Below, in pieces: positions 25,790-44,607 of a DNA stretch of 64,000 bases; position 1 is the first letter of the stretch, and every line of letters begins with the position of its first letter. The notes under the pieces were generated by a model that did no database searches, was not told the origin of the DNA, and was given only the letters and a program-made list of their open reading frames with translations. Source of the DNA: Ferruginibacter sp. Its GTDB lineage: Bacteria > Bacteroidota > Bacteroidia > Chitinophagales > Chitinophagaceae. Made by a program: the position numbers and the translations under genes. Where the stretch lies: assembly GCA_028288705.1 (NCBI GenBank), contig JAQBNH010000011.1, positions 95,017 through 159,016 of the forward strand. The letters are read 5' to 3'.

Positions 25790-26092
25790 ATGAAAAGACT
25801 GGAAACATATACAGAAGCCATAATTAAACTTTGTGAAACGCATAAAGTTAAAAGCCTCTACGCATTCGGTTCTGTTTTGACTGACAATTTTAATAAGGAA
25901 AGTGACATCGACCTGATTGTCGACTTCACAAACATAGCGGTAGAAGATTATGCAGACAACTACTTCGACTTCAAATTTTCTTTACAGGACATATTTAAAA
26001 GAGACATTGATCTTTTGGAAGAGAAAGCGATAAAAAATCCATATCTCAGACAGTCTATTAACAAACAAAGACAACTTGTTTATGGACATTGA
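25790..26092 (+). CDS. MntA-type minimal nucleotidyltransferase (HEPN/MNT antitoxin family)
   Basis: YAFGSVLTDNFNKESDIDLIVDF (GSx10DxD). Confidence 0.85.
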   Translation: MKRLETYTEAIIKLCETHKVKSLYAFGSVLTDNFNKESDIDLIVDFTNIAVEDYADNYFDFKFSLQDIFKRDIDLLEEKAIKNPYLRQSINKQRQLVYGH

Positions 26093-26420
26093 TATTAAAG
26101 CCTGGCTTCATGATATTTTGAATGCCATTATGGAAATTGAAAGTTTCATAATTGACATTAATAAGTAGTTTGTGAGATATCAAAGTGACCTCCGTACCAA
26201 ACGAGCTGTAGAAAGAAATATTGAAATAATAGGCGAAGCTTTAAGCCGTATTCTAAAACGTGACGAAACAATTCTGATATCAAATTCAAGAAAAATAGTT
26301 GATACACGAAACAGAATTATTCACGGTTATGACGCTGTATCTGATGATGTGATTTGGGGCATAGTTATCCGGCATCTCCCAATTTTACAATCAGAAATCC
26401 AGGAATTATTGGACGAGTAG
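26082..26420 (+). pseudogene. HepT/DUF86-like HEPN protein interrupted by an in-frame TAG (26166-26168)
   Basis: MDIDIKAWLHDILNAIMEIESFIIDINK*FVRYQSDLRTKRAVERNIEIIGEALSRI...DTRNRIIHGYDAVSDDVIWGIV; same frame both sides of TAG; Rx4HxY motif present. Confidence 0.75.
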
Positions 26421-37165: not shown

Positions 37166-37237
37166 TATCTTTGCGCCGGTTTTTCATAGGATATTGGATT
37201 TAAAGCGGGGCTGAATTTTTATTCCGGCCCTTTTTTA
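37166..37237 (+). ncRNA. sRNA-like unit copy 1: TAnnTTTG promoter + CATAGG...GGATT + GGGC hairpin + T run
   Basis: TATCTTTGCGCCGGTTTTTCATAGGATATTGGATTTAAAGCGGGGCTGAATTTTTATTCCGGCCCTTTTTT. Confidence 0.55.
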
Positions 37238-37273
37238 TGCCCTGGATTAAAACACGGCTTTTTAGGACGGTAG

Positions 37274-37658: not shown

Positions 37659-37725
37659 TATATTTGCACGAGTTTTCATAGGGTACGGATTAAATACGGG
37701 GCCAGGTTTCTACCTAGCCCTTTTA
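37659..37725 (+). ncRNA. sRNA-like unit copy 2
   Basis: TATATTTGCACGAGTTTTCATAGGGTACGGATTAAATACGGGGCCAGGTTTCTACCTAGCCCTTTT; aligns with copy 1 in promoter, CATAGG, GGATT and hairpin. Confidence 0.55.
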
Positions 37726-37836
37726 TGTTGAATGGGACTGCAATCCTTTTTAGCTTTCACCATCACCGAAATTCGTGGAAAGAATAAGTTCTTGCGTTCT
37801 ACCCGGTATTGCTTTTCACATTGGATCCAACTGCGT

Positions 37837-38157
37837 TTATTTGGGCTGCTTTTTACCTTTAATAAATGTTATCGCAGCGTTTATCTCCATATCCATCTGT
37901 TCCACCGCTTCATAAAAACTATCACTCTTGCGAAAATCATCAAACACGGATTGATCCAATAACTTTTTAACAGCCTTGATCCCGGCCTCAAATTTATCGA
38001 GGTTGCCACTGCCGCCGGTCATAGGATCTTCTCTAAATTGATTCATGATTGTTTCGAAATCGAGCAGGATTTTTTTGGCGAAGACGGCCGCCTCGAAAGA
38101 ATAGGTTTTTGGAATCTTTTTCCTAAGCTCTTCCAGGAAGATCACGTTTTCATTCAT
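37837..38157 (-). CDS. Hypothetical protein
   Basis: MNENVIFLEELRKKIPKTYSFEAAVFAKKILLDFE..., helical. Confidence 0.55.
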   Translation of the reverse strand: MNENVIFLEELRKKIPKTYSFEAAVFAKKILLDFETIMNQFREDPMTGGSGNLDKFEAGIKAVKKLLDQSVFDDFRKSDSFYEAVEQMDMEINAAITFIKGKKQPK

Positions 38158-39043
38158 GATTAAATTTAACTGTTTCCCTGCTTTCTTGCAAGAGTAGAAA
38201 TATAAGACATGGGTTGTTATCAATAAAACTCCTGCTTACAGCATCACGTCTCCCTCTGCGCATCTGGTTAGCCGCTGCTTTCAGGTACTAGTACCTAATG
38301 AAACATCCGAAAACTCCGCGAAATTGTTTGTATAAAGTAACGATGTAAACTTAAAGTCCACAGGCTACCCAGACAAAGTCCTCATAAGCCTCGAAGAACT
38401 TGGGAGGTTTAGGTTTTGTCAAAAAAGTGGGGCGTTAGCACCAACTTATTGAGACGTGAAGCAGCCTACGCCAAGTTGACTTTTATTAGGAAGTTTCATG
38501 ATGCGACAGTGAACTCAGGTTTTATAATACGAAAACTTTACGAATTTTATTTTGCCATCGCGACGTAGAATACAGATATTGACAGGAGTGAATTGTGGAT
38601 ATAGATGCTTAAAGAAAATGCAGAGTAGATGTTCGCAATTGCTGAGTTTGCATAGGAGCAAGCGCAAGATTTTAAGGAAATAATGATTGATAAATACTGA
38701 TACTTGGGAAACCATCATCGATTTTGATAAATCTCTGAAAGTTGAAAAATTTATCGGGAAGCAAGTTTGCAAGAAGAAGTGAAAAGGTGAGAAGTAAAAA
38801 TCATGCACGAAAATATTACTTAGGCAGATAATTTACTGGAAGATCATTTCTTCGATCTCACACCTAAATCCGCGACTGCCTTTCTAGCCTTAAATGCAGG
38901 AGGTATGACCAAACCAATTTTCTGGGATACGCACGATTCCACTTTACTTCTCATGAGGTGGTGAGTAAATTCAGGGGGAAAGGAGCTGGAAATAATCTTA
39001 TATTTATTCAATTCATTTTCGATTTAATAATTAATTCTGTTCG

Positions 39044-40225
39044 ATGGAAAGATTTGAGTTTCCTAAAATAATTACAATTTCGACTTTAGAAGAGTTGCAA
39101 ATAACCCTAAATCAAGATTTGGTCAAAAGCCATGATTTTTTCGTGCCTGTAGCCTTTGATCATATCGGCTTCGGTGTTTTGCCTCAGGCGATAATTATTT
39201 TTCAAACTTGGATAAGGAATTGCAAGCAGGGGGATCTCATTATAAGCGTCGAAATAGATGACGACGTTTCCCTTAGAGAGTTCGCATGCAGCTATCTAGG
39301 ATATGTAATCTTGTCTTGTGCCTGGAAACACAAAGAAATTATCAATCACAGAAAAGAACCCCTAAAAGGATTGTTTAAGCACTACACAGAACTGTTTCAC
39401 AAGAAAATTGATTTTTTGCAAGACTTGCCAAACGATTCCATTCTAATACCTTTTTTCGACCATTATTCAAAACAAAAGGGACTTTCACACTGGTTTTACA
39501 ACCAAAATTTTCAGTTTGCGGGGTCTCCTCAGGAAATTGAGTCGTCTGTGTACAGAATTTTTTCAGAACTAGGAAAGATTTATCGGTCTAAAATTGTCAA
39601 AAATGTCAAAGCTATTATTGATGATCTGGAGATAATCATTTGGGAACTTCTTAAGAACACCGCGGACCATGCTACTAAGGATCATTTAAATCAAGTTGAC
39701 CTGTCTCCAAATACAAGAGGAGTCTTTTTCAAGATCCATCGTAGCAGTAAGAAAAATTTTATTCAAATATCTAAAAGTCATAGTGGTCTGCAAAACTATC
39801 TTTCAAGCATGCTGCAGGAGGGGGATAATTTTCTGCTGGAAATTACGGTGTATGACACTGGGCCCGGAATGGTTAAAAGATACTGCGGGGAAAAATGGAA
39901 CAACAATACGCACACGGACGATGAGGTTTCAATAATAAAAAAATGCTTGTGTAAAGGTCTCTCGTCTGCACCTGGACTTAAAGGGACCGCAAAGGGATAT
40001 GGTCTAAATAATGTGTTAATGACCCTGAGTGAAAAGCAAGGTTTTTTACAAATCAGAACGGGAAGAACTAATTTATATCGTGATTTAGCAAAAGCTCCAC
40101 ATTTCGCAACGTCTGACTACACAAGCATCGAACTTCAAGACGTTACGACTAATAGTCCGTCAACTTTTTCAACAGCCCCAGAGTCGATCGGTACTATTGT
40201 TACTATGTTTTATCCCTTAAAATAA
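39044..40225 (+). CDS. GHKL/HATPase-type ATP-binding protein
   Basis: N-box ELLKNTADHA, G1 DTGPGM, G2 GTAKGYGLNNV. Confidence 0.82.
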   Translation: MERFEFPKIITISTLEELQITLNQDLVKSHDFFVPVAFDHIGFGVLPQAIIIFQTWIRNCKQGDLIISVEIDDDVSLREFACSYLGYVILSCAWKHKEIINHRKEPLKGLFKHYTELFHKKIDFLQDLPNDSILIPFFDHYSKQKGLSHWFYNQNFQFAGSPQEIESSVYRIFSELGKIYRSKIVKNVKAIIDDLEIIIWELLKNTADHATKDHLNQVDLSPNTRGVFFKIHRSSKKNFIQISKSHSGLQNYLSSMLQEGDNFLLEITVYDTGPGMVKRYCGEKWNNNTHTDDEVSIIKKCLCKGLSSAPGLKGTAKGYGLNNVLMTLSEKQGFLQIRTGRTNLYRDLAKAPHFATSDYTSIELQDVTTNSPSTFSTAPESIGTIVTMFYPLK

Positions 40226-40229
40226 CCCG

Positions 40230-42572
40230 ATGAACAAATTCTATCTTTTTAGTTTTACGAGAGAATACGAGGTTAAAGATAAGGGTGGTCGCCAGGAAAA
40301 GTTTCTGGTCGTTTGTTATCCTTATAAGCATCTCTCTGCAAATCCAACAGACATTTATAACCAGCTTAGAACTTACTTCCAATACAATATTTTACCTGAT
40401 AAAATAGTTGTACTCTGTGCAAAGTTTAATGAAACTGAAATCATTAATTTATTTAGGGATGACTCGGAATTATACAAGTATATTCCATTATTTACGCCAG
40501 ATAATGGCAAAGAAAACATCAGTATCCATTCACTTCAACAAAATGGAATTTTTCAATATCAAGAAGGATTCAAAATCGAACATACTCTGCTATCAGAAAT
40601 ACTCAATCGCGGCCTTGTCAAGATATTTGTGGACAAAGGGGGGCTGATCGTATCCCAATCTGCTCATCATTTTGTTTTTCCTTCCGGTAAGCATAGTGAT
40701 AGGTTTTTAAGACCGGGGAATGTTTTATTGGAGGGCATACATATAAATTATATCGCTTTTGCATTATTTGCACATTTAAAAGGTAGAAAATTCACTTCAA
40801 TTTATTGTGACACCTCATCTATAAACTCTTTGGCATTTGCTTATGTAATTTTATTGAGGGAGTTTTTTCCGAGATTTATTGGTTCTGTGGAAGTTGAAAG
40901 CTTTGGTTCCTATATCGGCTTCGAAAGGGGAAAGTTTTCGGCTCCTCTAAATTCACTTTTCTTGATTTCATCGAGTACTTCGGGTAGTATTATTGAAAGA
41001 ATGGTAAATGATCGAAAACAGAATATTAAAATGGAAAATATATCTATTATTTATGGGTTAGACATTCCAGTAAAATTTGCCGATTCGTTAGTTTGCAATT
41101 TGAACCATCAGGAAAGTAGCAATCCCCAAGGTTTGTTGTCATTTGAATCATACAACGTAAGCAAAGGCATATCCTGTAAATTTTGTTCGGACAGATCGAC
41201 AGCAATTGATGTTCAGGGGGACGTTTTTCTCTTAGAAAAACCTTCGGTCAAGGGAATCCTACTTTCAGTTCATGACAACCCTACTTTTTTAAAGAAATTT
41301 TCTGAATATTTTATTAAATCGGATAAAAAGGAAGGCCTGATCAAATGTTATTACAAAGAAAATAGTACAGATGATAAGAAATATGAAATATACTTGGACA
41401 TCAATGTAATATTAAGAGAATGGTATAGGAGGACTGACAGCCATCCTTTTAAAAAAATATTTTCGAAAATAGAAAAATTTGTTTTTCAAAATATACCTGC
41501 TTCAACTAAATATTTAGTTGTATTGCCTGACCAATCTTCTATTCAGTTTGCCAAACTTATCAAGTCTATCTTGCACTCTTACAATGTCAACATTCCAGTA
41601 AAGAATGTTATAGGGATTCAAGATTTGAAAAGTATCGACAAGAATGGTAAAGGGGCAATTGTAATTGTAAGTGCTTCCATCACAACTGGTCGAAATCTTT
41701 TGTATATAAGCAGGGCTCTGCGGGAATTTGAGGATACTTATCGAAAAACCTATTTTACATTTTTAAGTAGACCTGCTAATAAAAAGCACTTCGAATTTCT
41801 GGAATCCAACTTGTCGCTCGGCGAATTTGGTAAAGGCACACATAAGATGAATTACATTGAACAAATATTGTGTGCTCAAGAAGCACACAATACGCCTTGG
41901 CATATCGAAAAAGAATTTTTAAAATCTTTAGAAGAATTTTGCGAGGATAATGAACTTTCGAAATCGACAAAGGATTTCTGCGGCAAACGGCTTAATAACC
42001 TAAACAATAGTGGAAAAAAGAAAAGACTGACTAACAACCTTTTTTTTCCTTCATTGACAGGTAAAGTCTTAAAAATTAATAAGGGGTTTGCATTTGCACC
42101 GACATTATCACACTTTATTGAAACATCAACCCAAGCTGATGTTTACTTTATCATCTCAACGATTTTAAATGAACTACGATGTAGCGGCACCTTAAATCAA
42201 AGCGAATATGTTAGAAATTTATTAGAACCCGGAAATTTTGTTAGGTTCAACGACGGTATTATCCAAGCTGCATTATTGCGGGCCGCCAGACCCGAGGAAT
42301 TGCGGTATGATCTATCATATGAGATGGCTTTGCAGATGCAGGACATCTTAATCGATATGATCAATCATTCTGATGATGAACATGCCGAAGCATTAACTGA
42401 ATTTTTGTATGCTATAGCTATTAAAAAGCTTAGGATCCCAAACAGAGTTATCGAAAAGTGTATAAAACTTATAACCGAAAAGCAATTATTAAAAAAAGAT
42501 TCGATTCTGAACGGTCTCATTGCCTTCATTCGGCAGAAGGTGGTGACAGCGCAGTCGACTTCAGCAACATGA
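40230..42572 (+). CDS. Large protein with two phosphoribosyltransferase-like segments
   Basis: FPSGKHSDRFLRPGNVLLEG (orotate-PRTase-like N-terminal motif) and GAIVIVSASITTGRNLLYISRALRE (degenerate PRPP-loop-like). Starts 4 nt after the GHKL gene. Confidence 0.6.
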   Translation: MNKFYLFSFTREYEVKDKGGRQEKFLVVCYPYKHLSANPTDIYNQLRTYFQYNILPDKIVVLCAKFNETEIINLFRDDSELYKYIPLFTPDNGKENISIHSLQQNGIFQYQEGFKIEHTLLSEILNRGLVKIFVDKGGLIVSQSAHHFVFPSGKHSDRFLRPGNVLLEGIHINYIAFALFAHLKGRKFTSIYCDTSSINSLAFAYVILLREFFPRFIGSVEVESFGSYIGFERGKFSAPLNSLFLISSSTSGSIIERMVNDRKQNIKMENISIIYGLDIPVKFADSLVCNLNHQESSNPQGLLSFESYNVSKGISCKFCSDRSTAIDVQGDVFLLEKPSVKGILLSVHDNPTFLKKFSEYFIKSDKKEGLIKCYYKENSTDDKKYEIYLDINVILREWYRRTDSHPFKKIFSKIEKFVFQNIPASTKYLVVLPDQSSIQFAKLIKSILHSYNVNIPVKNVIGIQDLKSIDKNGKGAIVIVSASITTGRNLLYISRALREFEDTYRKTYFTFLSRPANKKHFEFLESNLSLGEFGKGTHKMNYIEQILCAQEAHNTPWHIEKEFLKSLEEFCEDNELSKSTKDFCGKRLNNLNNSGKKKRLTNNLFFPSLTGKVLKINKGFAFAPTLSHFIETSTQADVYFIISTILNELRCSGTLNQSEYVRNLLEPGNFVRFNDGIIQAALLRAARPEELRYDLSYEMALQMQDILIDMINHSDDEHAEALTEFLYAIAIKKLRIPNRVIEKCIKLITEKQLLKKDSILNGLIAFIRQKVVTAQSTSAT

Positions 42573-42630
42573 CGGAAAAATATTTACGATTCGCCGTTCT
42601 AACTGGAATGCTGACAAGAACTTAATAAGC

Positions 42631-42723
42631 GTGGCTACTTTGGAGTTGGTCACAGCTGTGGCTTCTTGGTTTATAATACTGTTTCTAGTTTACCGCATAT
42701 TCAAAACTCTAATTCAAAAATAA
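42631..42723 (+). CDS. Candidate 30-aa single-TM microprotein (GTG start)
   Basis: (M)ATLELVTAVASWFIILFLVYRIFKTLIQK*; below the ORF-track length cut-off. Confidence 0.35.
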   Translation: MATLELVTAVASWFIILFLVYRIFKTLIQK

Positions 42724-42730
42724 TTGACTG

Positions 42731-43876
42731 ATGAAGGAAAACCAATTTTTTGAAAAACAAACTATTTCGTCAAGAATAAAAGCAAGCATTGTTTCTGGTT
42801 ACTTTCCCAGCTACTGCAAAATTATTGTAAAAAAAAATATTCCATCGGAGATTCGTTATATAGATCTGTTCGCAGGACCGGGGATTTATGGCGATGGGAA
42901 TGTTTCAACACCACTATTAATCGCACGACAATGCGTAGGGGATAATTTTTTAAAACAAAAAGTCCGTTTTATCTTTAATGACAATCTTTATTCTGATGAA
43001 CTCAAAAAGAATTTTTGTAACGAGTTTCCTTATGGCACATTTTTGAAAAAAGTTCATTTTGGAAAAAGTACAGTTGGAGAGACACCAGCCATCACGGATT
43101 TATTAGTTAGAAGTACCCACGTCGAAAAGTTAAACGAAAAGCCCTCCCTTTTATTCATAGACCCTTTTGGCTATAAAGGAATTGAAACTAAGGTTTTAGC
43201 CGAGTTTTTAAAAAATTGGGGAAACGAGATTTTCCTTTTTGTCAACACCAAAAGAATTCATCCTGCACTTGAAAATGAAAAATTTGAAGGATTAATGCAC
43301 GACTTGTTCCCAACCACATTAGAAAAGATAAAAACTGACCGAAGATATAAGTCTACTGTATCCGAACGCTTGAGTTTAATCATAAATTCACTGGGAAACG
43401 AATATCAGTCAATACTTGGAGGTACAGTTTATTACACTGCTTTTAAGTTTCAAGAAGAAGATATTGACGCCACTAGTCATTATATTCTACACCTAACGAA
43501 AGGTTCCCGAGGATATGATTTGATCAAAACCACTTACAATGACTTTGCAAATGTTGGGACAGTCTTTGACGGGGTAAATACTTATACTTTTGATGCTAAG
43601 AAACTTGATAAGCAAGCAAATGAGCTTTTTGATTTAAATTCTATCAATATTGATAAATTGAAGGAGGATCTTGTTGTGCATTTCAAAGGCAAAAAACTAA
43701 GCGCAAATGAGTTGTTTGAAAGACATCATACAACTGGGCTTTATAGTCGAAATCATTACACAGAGGCACTTAGAAGACTTGTAGGAGAAGAGAAGGTAGC
43801 TTCGCATTTTATCGATGGGAAAAAGCATACTAAAACTGTTCTACTTTCAAAAGAATGTATTTTAAACTTTAACTAA
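42731..43876 (+). CDS. Three-Cys-motif partner protein TcmP-like
   Basis: [49 protein letters not shown]. Confidence 0.82.
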
Positions 43877-44607
43877 TGGCAAACTCAACAATTGAATGGA
43901 CAGAAATGACTTGGAACCCTACGACTGGGTGCACAAAAATCTCTGCAGGCTGCAAGTTTTGTTATGCCGAAATTATGACAAGACGATTAAAAGCAATGGG
44001 CCAGGAAAAATACCGGCACGGGTTTAAAATTGTCAAGACACACCCAGAAACACTGGAGATACCCTACACTTGGAAAACACCAAAAATAGTGTTCGTAAAT
44101 TCCATGAGTGATCTCTTTCATAACGACGTACCGCTTGATTACATAAAAAAAGTTTTCCGAGTAATGAATGAAAACCCTCAACACGTTTTTCAAGTATTAA
44201 CAAAAAGAGCAGAGAGACTCTTTGAAATTCACAAGGAGGTTCGTTGGACACATAATATTTGGATGGGCGTTTCTGTCGAAGACGGCAGAGTTGCTGAACG
44301 TATAGACTTTTTACGAAAGACTCGCGCAAAGGTAAAGTTCCTTTCCCTAGAGCCTTTAATTGGTGAACTCAAAAATCTAAAGCTAACAAAAATCGATTGG
44401 GTAATTGTTGGTGGAGAAAGTGGACACACGCCAAGGCCAATGAATCCCGAGTGGGTTTTAGACATTCAGGATCAATGCGAGAAATCTAAAGTCGCATTTT
44501 TCTTCAAGCAATGGGGTGGCAAAAATAAAAAAGCGGCCGGTCGAATCTTAAATGGCAGGACTTATGATGAAATGCCAAATGTCCATGAGTTAATTCGCAA
44601 TGCTTAA
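43876..44607 (+). CDS. Phage Gp37/Gp68 (DUF5131) family three-Cys-motif protein
   Basis: [67 protein letters not shown]; overlaps TcmP stop (TAATG). Confidence 0.92.

What the first reader, a model, noticed from the sequence alone, without database searches (positions are those of the whole stretch)
39044..44607. Four-gene cassette: GHKL ATPase + PRTase-like protein + TcmP + Gp37/Gp68
Seen: two tightly coupled pairs on one strand (4-nt gap between 39044-40225 and 40230-42572; TAATG overlap between 42731-43876 and 43876-44607), separated by 158 bp and isolated in an accessory region. Established: Gp37/Gp68 (DUF5131) and three-Cys-motif partner TcmP are known phage/bacterial partner families of unclear function. 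Inference: adding a GHKL ATPase and a large PRTase-like protein gives a sensor/switch plus nucleotide- or nucleic-acid-modifying effector layout typical of defence islands. I do not know of a described system with this composition.
Basis: partly seen in the sequence, partly recalled or inferred. Interest (0 to 1): 0.85.

Follow-up and report, generated by a model that had tools for sequence, protein, structure and literature searches.

The report
Two separate candidate phage-defence gene pairs
The reported four-gene cassette is real, but it is two unrelated two-gene units that happen to sit side by side, each already listed as an unproven anti-phage candidate; the more interesting unit pairs an intact ATPase with a protein whose two enzyme-like domains have lost a key part of the active site.

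Summary
All four ORFs are real at the stated coordinates. They are not one system. ORF1+ORF2 match PADLOC candidate PDC-M65 end to end; ORF3+ORF4 match PDC-M30/M41 (TcmP + DUF5131). In 77 ORF2 loci the GHKL gene adjoins ORF2 in 73, while TcmP/DUF5131 lies within 10 kb in none. None of 20 DUF5131 loci carries the GHKL/ORF2 pair. The pairs are independent modules. PDC-M65 is often embedded in type I restriction-modification operons or other defence islands. ORF1 is an intact GHKL ATPase. ORF2 has no Pfam domain; a confident AlphaFold model matches orotate phosphoribosyltransferases, but both candidate PRPP loops lack the acidic pair in every homologue, and its most invariant residues lie in a C-terminal helical domain seen nowhere else in 396 genomes. 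Best reading: a GHKL-switched defence pair whose partner binds a nucleotide-like ligand rather than doing standard PRTase chemistry; effector unknown, anti-phage activity untested. In pair 2, DUF5131 is nearly constant (68-86% identity) and TcmP highly variable (mostly 23-29%) across the genus. In passing: a multicopy ~60-nt RNA-like element with no Rfam match.

The parts
39044..40225 (+). ORF1, GHKL ATPase, PDC-M65A (393 aa)
   Evidence: PADLOC PDC-M65A 1-393, E 4.5e-104; N, G1, G2 and G3 boxes invariant in 67 sequences
39644..39658 (+). ORF1 N-box, E201-x3-N205
   Evidence: E201 and N205 in 67 of 67 sequences
39854..39868 (+). ORF1 G1 box, D271-x-G273-x-G275
   Evidence: 67 of 67 sequences
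39995..40006 (+). ORF1 G2 box, G318-x-G320-L321
   Evidence: G320 and L321 67 of 67; G318 66 of 67
40230..42572 (+). ORF2, PDC-M65B (780 aa): two PRTase-fold-like domains, a CxxC segment and a unique C-terminal helical domain
   Evidence: PADLOC PDC-M65B E 3e-241; AF2 pLDDT 88; Foldseek top hits orotate PRTases, E 1.5e-4; no Pfam domain
40965..40985 (+). ORF2 first PRPP-loop-like segment (residues 246-252, ISSSTSG)
   Evidence: no acidic residue at positions 246-250 in any of 67 sequences; aligned in register with the second loop by hhalign
41175..41186 (+). ORF2 CxxC (C316, C319), possible metal site
   Evidence: 65 of 67 sequences
41670..41690 (+). ORF2 second PRPP-loop-like segment (residues 481-487, SASITTG)
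   Evidence: aligns with PyrE EDLISTG; the two acidic residues are replaced mostly by A/G/S
41895..42569 (+). ORF2 C-terminal helical domain (residues 556-780), with RFNDGIIQ at 672-679, R684 and E724
   Evidence: W557, E560, R587, Q635, R672, N674, D675, G676, Q679, R684 and E724 invariant in 67; a profile of residues 600-760 found only the 5 genomes that carry PDC-M65B, of 396
42731..43876 (+). ORF3, TcmP, PDC-M30A-like (381 aa)
   Evidence: TIGR04474 E 3.3e-29; PDC-M30A E 3e-25; motif DLFAGPG at 42863-42883
43589..43798 (+). ORF3 C-terminal GMT-like winged helix (residues 287-356)
   Evidence: PF22560 E 1e-10
43876..44607 (+). ORF4, DUF5131 (Gp37/Gp68), PDC-M41B/M30B (243 aa)
   Evidence: PF07505 E 2.3e-101; PDC-M41B E 1.4e-129, PDC-M30B E 8.9e-127
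43930..43962 (+). ORF4 three-Cys motif, C19-x6-C26-x2-C29
   Evidence: present in the window protein and in 5 genus relatives

Best explanation
Two independent, horizontally mobile defence-candidate modules lie next to each other. Module 1 (PDC-M65): a GHKL ATPase acts as an ATP-driven switch or sensor for its partner, a large protein with two phosphoribosyltransferase-fold-like domains that have lost the PRPP acidic pair and so most likely bind a nucleotide or nucleobase-like ligand without canonical PRTase catalysis; the C-terminal helical domain, with the strictest conservation, is the likely output part. I expect an anti-phage or anti-plasmid system, probably acting by growth arrest. Module 2 (PDC-M30/M41): a nearly constant three-Cys, radical-SAM-like DUF5131 protein paired with a variable, SAM-methyltransferase-like TcmP carrying a winged helix; the variable partner probably recognises the target and the constant enzyme does the chemistry. 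Shown: gene structure, family membership, pair conservation, lack of co-conservation, defence context, motif loss, constant/variable contrast. Inferred: sensing, ligand binding, output, and that either module stops phages.
For: PADLOC full-length matches. The GHKL gene adjoins ORF2 in 73 of 77 loci; TcmP/DUF5131 in 0 of 77, and the reciprocal is 0 of 20. Context: the pair is embedded inside type I R-M operons (hsdS-[pair]-hsdR in L080, hsdS-[pair]-hsdM in L068, MTase-[pair]-hsdS...hsdR in L023), sits beside Qat genes, near HmaC-like and LmuB-like genes, and in a plasmid region with TIR genes, thyX and dgt. PADLOC type I specificity subunits among nearest neighbours: 9 of 118 against 0 of 118 control genes. 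GHKL boxes invariant, PRPP acidic residues absent. PRTase fold. C-terminal domain seen only in this family. Constant DUF5131 and variable TcmP, all TcmP by TIGR04474.
Against: No activity data here and none found in the held papers. GHKL proteins can be kinases, so ORF1 could be the effector. Foldseek TM-scores are modest (target-normalised about 0.54) and no residue-level superposition was available; the sequence match of the second loop to PyrE does not exceed every shuffle. The output role of the C-terminal domain rests on conservation alone. Nucleotide-metabolism neighbours are few.
Confidence: 0.55

Rival explanations
1. One four-gene system: the GHKL/PRTase pair and the TcmP/DUF5131 pair work together here.
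For: Same strand, 158 bp apart, one low-GC segment.
Against: No co-occurrence in 77 PDC-M65 loci or 20 DUF5131 loci. DUF5131 is common on its own (20 of 148 Bacteroidota genomes) and the genus carries TcmP-DUF5131 pairs elsewhere. Defence islands gather unrelated systems.
Confidence: 0.05
2. Toxin-antitoxin-like logic: ORF2 is a toxin and the GHKL protein restrains it, as DprA does for ShosT-type PRTase toxins.
For: Tight two-gene operon in nearly every locus; PRTase-fold proteins are proposed effectors in DprA-PRTase, ShosTA and type III retrons (PMC9122126, PMC12548924).
Against: Only PDC-M65B, no ShosT or retron model, matches ORF2 in PADLOC at E 0.1 or better; ORF2 lacks the PRPP acidic pair; the partner is a GHKL ATPase, not DprA or a reverse transcriptase.
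Confidence: 0.25
3. Roles reversed: ORF2 senses nucleotide changes caused by infection and the GHKL protein is the output, for example a protein kinase of the anti-sigma/histidine-kinase type.
For: ORF1 N-box ELFxNTxEHG resembles the RsbW/histidine-kinase pattern (weak hhalign match); thyX or a deoxynucleoside-kinase-like gene adjoins a few pairs.
Against: Weak alignment; in a tested GHKL defence protein (VcSduA, PMC12137116) the GHKL domain is thought to be the regulator; the C-terminal domain of ORF2 is the more conserved unexplained part.
Confidence: 0.2
4. Pair 1 is a housekeeping or metabolic unit, not defence.
For: Some copies sit among metabolic genes (Pantoea plasmids); PRTase fold.
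Against: Rare and patchy (5 of 396 Bacteroidota genomes), on plasmids, embedded in R-M operons and defence islands.
Confidence: 0.12

Closest known systems
PADLOC PDC-M65 (phage defence candidate, A+B)
   Same: Both proteins match end to end and are adjacent in the same order.
   Different: Nothing structural; it is a candidate without a published function that I could find in the held papers.
PADLOC PDC-M30 / PDC-M41 (TcmP + DUF5131)
   Same: DUF5131 partner matches both B models; TcmP matches M30A and TIGR04474.
   Different: The TcmP is a distant member (E 3e-25 to M30A, 1.6e-4 to M41A).
DprA-PRTase / ShosTA and type III retron PRTase effectors
   Same: A PRTase-fold protein next to a different regulatory partner in defence loci (PMC9122126, PMC12548924).
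   Different: Partner is a GHKL ATPase; two PRTase-like domains with the acidic pair lost; no ShosT or retron model match.
VcSduA, Shedu with an N-terminal GHKL ATPase
   Same: GHKL ATPase as proposed controller of a defence output (PMC12137116).
   Different: GHKL on a separate protein; no DUF4263 nuclease domain.
Orotate phosphoribosyltransferase (PyrE)
   Same: Fold match; second loop aligns in register with the PRPP loop.
   Different: Acidic pair of the PRPP loop absent in all 67 sequences.

Membership tests
PADLOC PDC-M65 | M65A and M65B homologues adjacent | tested here: met
   E 4.5e-104 and 3e-241, full length, 4-nt gap
PADLOC PDC-M65 | anti-phage activity | not testable with these tools
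   bench assay needed; PDCs are mostly unvalidated according to PMC12988326
PADLOC PDC-M30/M41 | TcmP-type A protein plus DUF5131 B protein, adjacent | tested here: met
   M30A E 3e-25; M41B 1.4e-129 and M30B 8.9e-127; one-base overlap
GHKL ATPase superfamily | N, G1, G2 and G3 boxes | tested here: met
   invariant in 67 sequences, although Pfam HATPase_c is below cut-off
Phosphoribosyltransferase, fold | PRTase type I fold | tested here: met
   AF2 pLDDT 88, Foldseek orotate PRTase E 1.5e-4, probability 1.00
Phosphoribosyltransferase, enzyme | acidic pair in the PRPP-binding loop | tested here: not met
   no D or E at the equivalent positions of either loop in 67 of 67; loop assignment
ShosTA / DprA-PRTase | DprA-like partner and ShosT-type PRTase | tested here: not met
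   partner is GHKL; only PDC-M65B matches ORF2 in PADLOC at E 0.1 or better
Shedu (GHKL type) | DUF4263 PD-(D/E)xK nuclease domain | tested here: not met
   no such Pfam or PADLOC match in ORF1 or ORF2
Radical SAM enzymes (ORF4) | canonical CX3CX2C cluster motif | tested here: not met
   motif is CX6CX2C; matches TIGR04471 rSAM_mob_pairA but below its cut-off; 4Fe-4S binding not testable
Single four-gene system | co-conservation of both pairs | tested here: not met
   0 of 77 and 0 of 20 loci

The most novel reading that the evidence does not exclude
PDC-M65 is a new kind of immune switch: a GHKL ATPase coupled to a tandem pseudo-phosphoribosyltransferase that reads a nucleotide-like signal during infection and triggers an undescribed C-terminal effector domain (RFNDGIIQ...R...E).
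Probability: 0.3. Interest if true: 0.7.

Novelty: new member of a known kind. Interest (0 to 1): 0.42.

Why it matters
It corrects a plausible four-gene story into two known but uncharacterised candidate systems and gives each concrete, testable features: a GHKL switch with invariant motifs, a PRTase-fold partner without the PRPP acidic pair and with a unique invariant domain, and a constant-enzyme/variable-partner pair. If the pseudo-PRTase reading holds, a metabolic enzyme fold has been turned into an immune sensor or scaffold.

Tried and rejected
Four-gene system: rejected on co-occurrence. First AF2 model from 5 sequences: poor (pLDDT 55); replaced by a 50-sequence run. STAS domain in the ORF1 N-terminus: hhalign not significant. 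hhalign of the first PRTase-like domain against PyrE: not significant on sequence, so that assignment rests on the fold search; an SGKHS/SGWHS resemblance to PyrE was seen by eye only and did not stand out in a window scan. PDB sequence searches: nothing significant. Phage records: none for ORF2, one viral contig. E. coli: no match to a Pantoea homologue by DNA. Empty-site comparison: abandoned, since the downstream gene is itself accessory in the genus (7 of 40 genomes). Literature: no paper in the held library characterises PDC-M65, TcmP or DUF5131.

Full report
OBSERVATION. The four ORFs are present exactly as described: 39044-40225, 40230-42572, 42731-43876 and 43876-44607, all +, with gaps of 4 and 158 nt and a TAATG overlap. 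G+C is 0.34-0.36 across them against about 0.43-0.47 in most of the window. HMM matches show that these are genes.

IDENTITY. PADLOC-DB names both pairs: ORF1 = PDC-M65A (E 4.5e-104), ORF2 = PDC-M65B (E 3e-241); ORF3 = PDC-M30A (E 3e-25) and TcmP TIGR04474 (E 3.3e-29); ORF4 = PDC-M41B (E 1.4e-129) / PDC-M30B (E 8.9e-127) and DUF5131. PDCs come from a guilt-by-embedding survey (Payne et al. 2024 preprint, as described in PMC12988326), and validation is pending for most of them.

ONE SYSTEM OR TWO. ORF2 homologues: 5 of 396 Bacteroidota genomes including this one; 77 loci in a scan of GTDB species genomes, mainly Bacteroidota and Pseudomonadota, with single members in Planctomycetota, Acidobacteriota, Chlamydiota and Melainabacteria. 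A GHKL homologue is directly upstream in 73 of 77; of the other four, three are cut by a contig end and one ORF2 is truncated. TcmP or DUF5131 homologues appear in none within the fetched flanks, up to 10 kb (TcmP was sought with a single-sequence query, but DUF5131 is well conserved and would be seen). DUF5131 occurs in 20 of 148 Bacteroidota genomes; none of 20 fetched DUF5131 neighbourhoods holds GHKL or ORF2 homologues. Six genus relatives carry DUF5131 elsewhere, in five of them behind a TcmP. The pairs are independent modules; their adjacency here is best read as island clustering.

DEFENCE CONTEXT OF PDC-M65. Nearest neighbours of the pair (118 proteins) include type I specificity subunits, N6-methylases, HsdR, integrases, OLD/AbiEii-type ATPases, TIR, SEFIR and Schlafen. 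At the same E-value cut, PADLOC type I specificity models hit up to 9 of 118 neighbours and 0 of 118 control genes from arbitrary Bacteroidota segments; 231 against 18 PADLOC families were hit overall (Fisher two-sided p about 0.003 by my own arithmetic for 9 v 0). The controls are not matched locus by locus. The pair is embedded inside type I operons at different places: hsdM...hsdS-[pair]-hsdR in L080, hsdR...hsdS-[pair]-hsdM in L068, methylase-[pair]-hsdS...hsdR in L023, [ORF2]-hsdR in L057, [pair]-hsdM in L050. Other copies lie beside Qat genes on a P. aeruginosa plasmid, near an HmaC-like and a LmuB-like gene (L065, L072), and on a Rhizobium plasmid next to thyX, dgt and TIR genes. Eleven plasmid records carry the family, no phage record does.

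PROTEIN 1. Pfam HATPase_c is below threshold (E 0.02), but the GHKL boxes are invariant in 67 sequences: E201, N205, D271, G273, G275, G320, L321, G383. The N-terminal ~150 residues hold an invariant D139 and match no family; a STAS guess failed.

PROTEIN 2. No Pfam domain above chance in 50 members. AF2 with a 50-sequence alignment: pLDDT 88, pTM 0.64. Foldseek: best matches orotate PRTases (E 1.5e-4, probability 1.00, target TM 0.54), then HGPRT, PyrR and PurR. The second PRTase-like loop aligns with PyrE's PRPP loop (GAIVIVSASITTGRNLL v GQKVVVVEDLISTGGSS) by hhalign, and it is the top-scoring window in a profile scan, though not above every shuffle. The first domain's loop aligns in register with the second. 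In both, the acidic pair is replaced by non-acidic residues in all 67 sequences. The standard PRTase reaction is therefore unlikely (established role of that pair in PRPP binding; inference). The C-terminal helical domain holds most invariant residues (W557, E560, R587, Q635, R672, N674, D675, G676, Q679, R684, E724), and a profile of residues 600-760 finds only the genomes that have PDC-M65B.

MECHANISM. Most likely the GHKL ATPase dimerises on ATP in response to an infection cue and gates its partner, which binds a nucleotide-like ligand and acts through its C-terminal domain. All of this is inference. Precedents are the proposed GHKL control of a nuclease in VcSduA (PMC12137116) and PRTase-fold effectors beside DprA or in type III retrons (PMC9122126, PMC12548924). 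A nucleotide link is hinted at by thyX next to two divergent pairs (L250, L092) and a deoxynucleoside-kinase-like ORF next to a third (L061); three of about 85 loci is only a lead.

PAIR 2. ORF3 has a Rossmann-type DLFAGPG motif and a C-terminal winged helix. ORF4 has CX6CX2C, not the canonical radical SAM CX3CX2C. Across the window and five genus relatives, DUF5131 proteins are 68-86% identical while their adjacent TcmP proteins are mostly 23-29% identical, with two closer pairs at 39% and 55%, and all are TIGR04474. This constant-enzyme/variable-partner pattern suggests that TcmP sets specificity.

VERDICT. A real but largely catalogued find: two candidate systems, not a new four-gene one. 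The scientific value lies in the pseudo-PRTase reading of PDC-M65B, its unique domain, and the TcmP variability.

Noticed in passing
window 37181-37240 (+) and a diverged copy at about 37673-37728 (+): A ~60-nt element: Bacteroidota-type TAnnTTTG promoter, near-invariant CGGTTTTTCATAGGATATTGGATTT, then a terminator hairpin with two-sided compensatory changes (4 of 12 pairs). Nine copies in this genome (none for the reversed pattern), present in many genus relatives, sometimes in tandem, with unrelated downstream genes and no Rfam match: looks like an undescribed small-RNA family.
   Followed up: partly
L008-L012 and window 42731-44607: Within one genus, adjacent TcmP and DUF5131 genes diverge at very different rates (mostly 23-29% against 68-86% identity), suggesting a variable specificity partner beside a constant enzyme.
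   Followed up: partly
window 25790-26092 and 26172-26420 (+): A MNT nucleotidyltransferase (PADLOC PDC-S09, E 3.4e-30) followed by a short HEPN-like ORF with an RNRIIHG motif: probable MNT/HEPN toxin-antitoxin pair about 13 kb upstream.
   Followed up: partly
L250 5534-9893 (Rhizobium plasmid p3); L092; L061: thyX lies next to the PDC-M65 pair in two divergent alphaproteobacterial loci, and a deoxynucleoside-kinase-like ORF directly upstream in a Parachlamydiaceae bin; dgt follows in L250.
   Followed up: partly
window 37837-38223 (-): This 128-aa ORF next to the cassette has an 80%-identical DNA copy at G000:C14:8068-8411 in the same genome; nature unknown.
   Followed up: no
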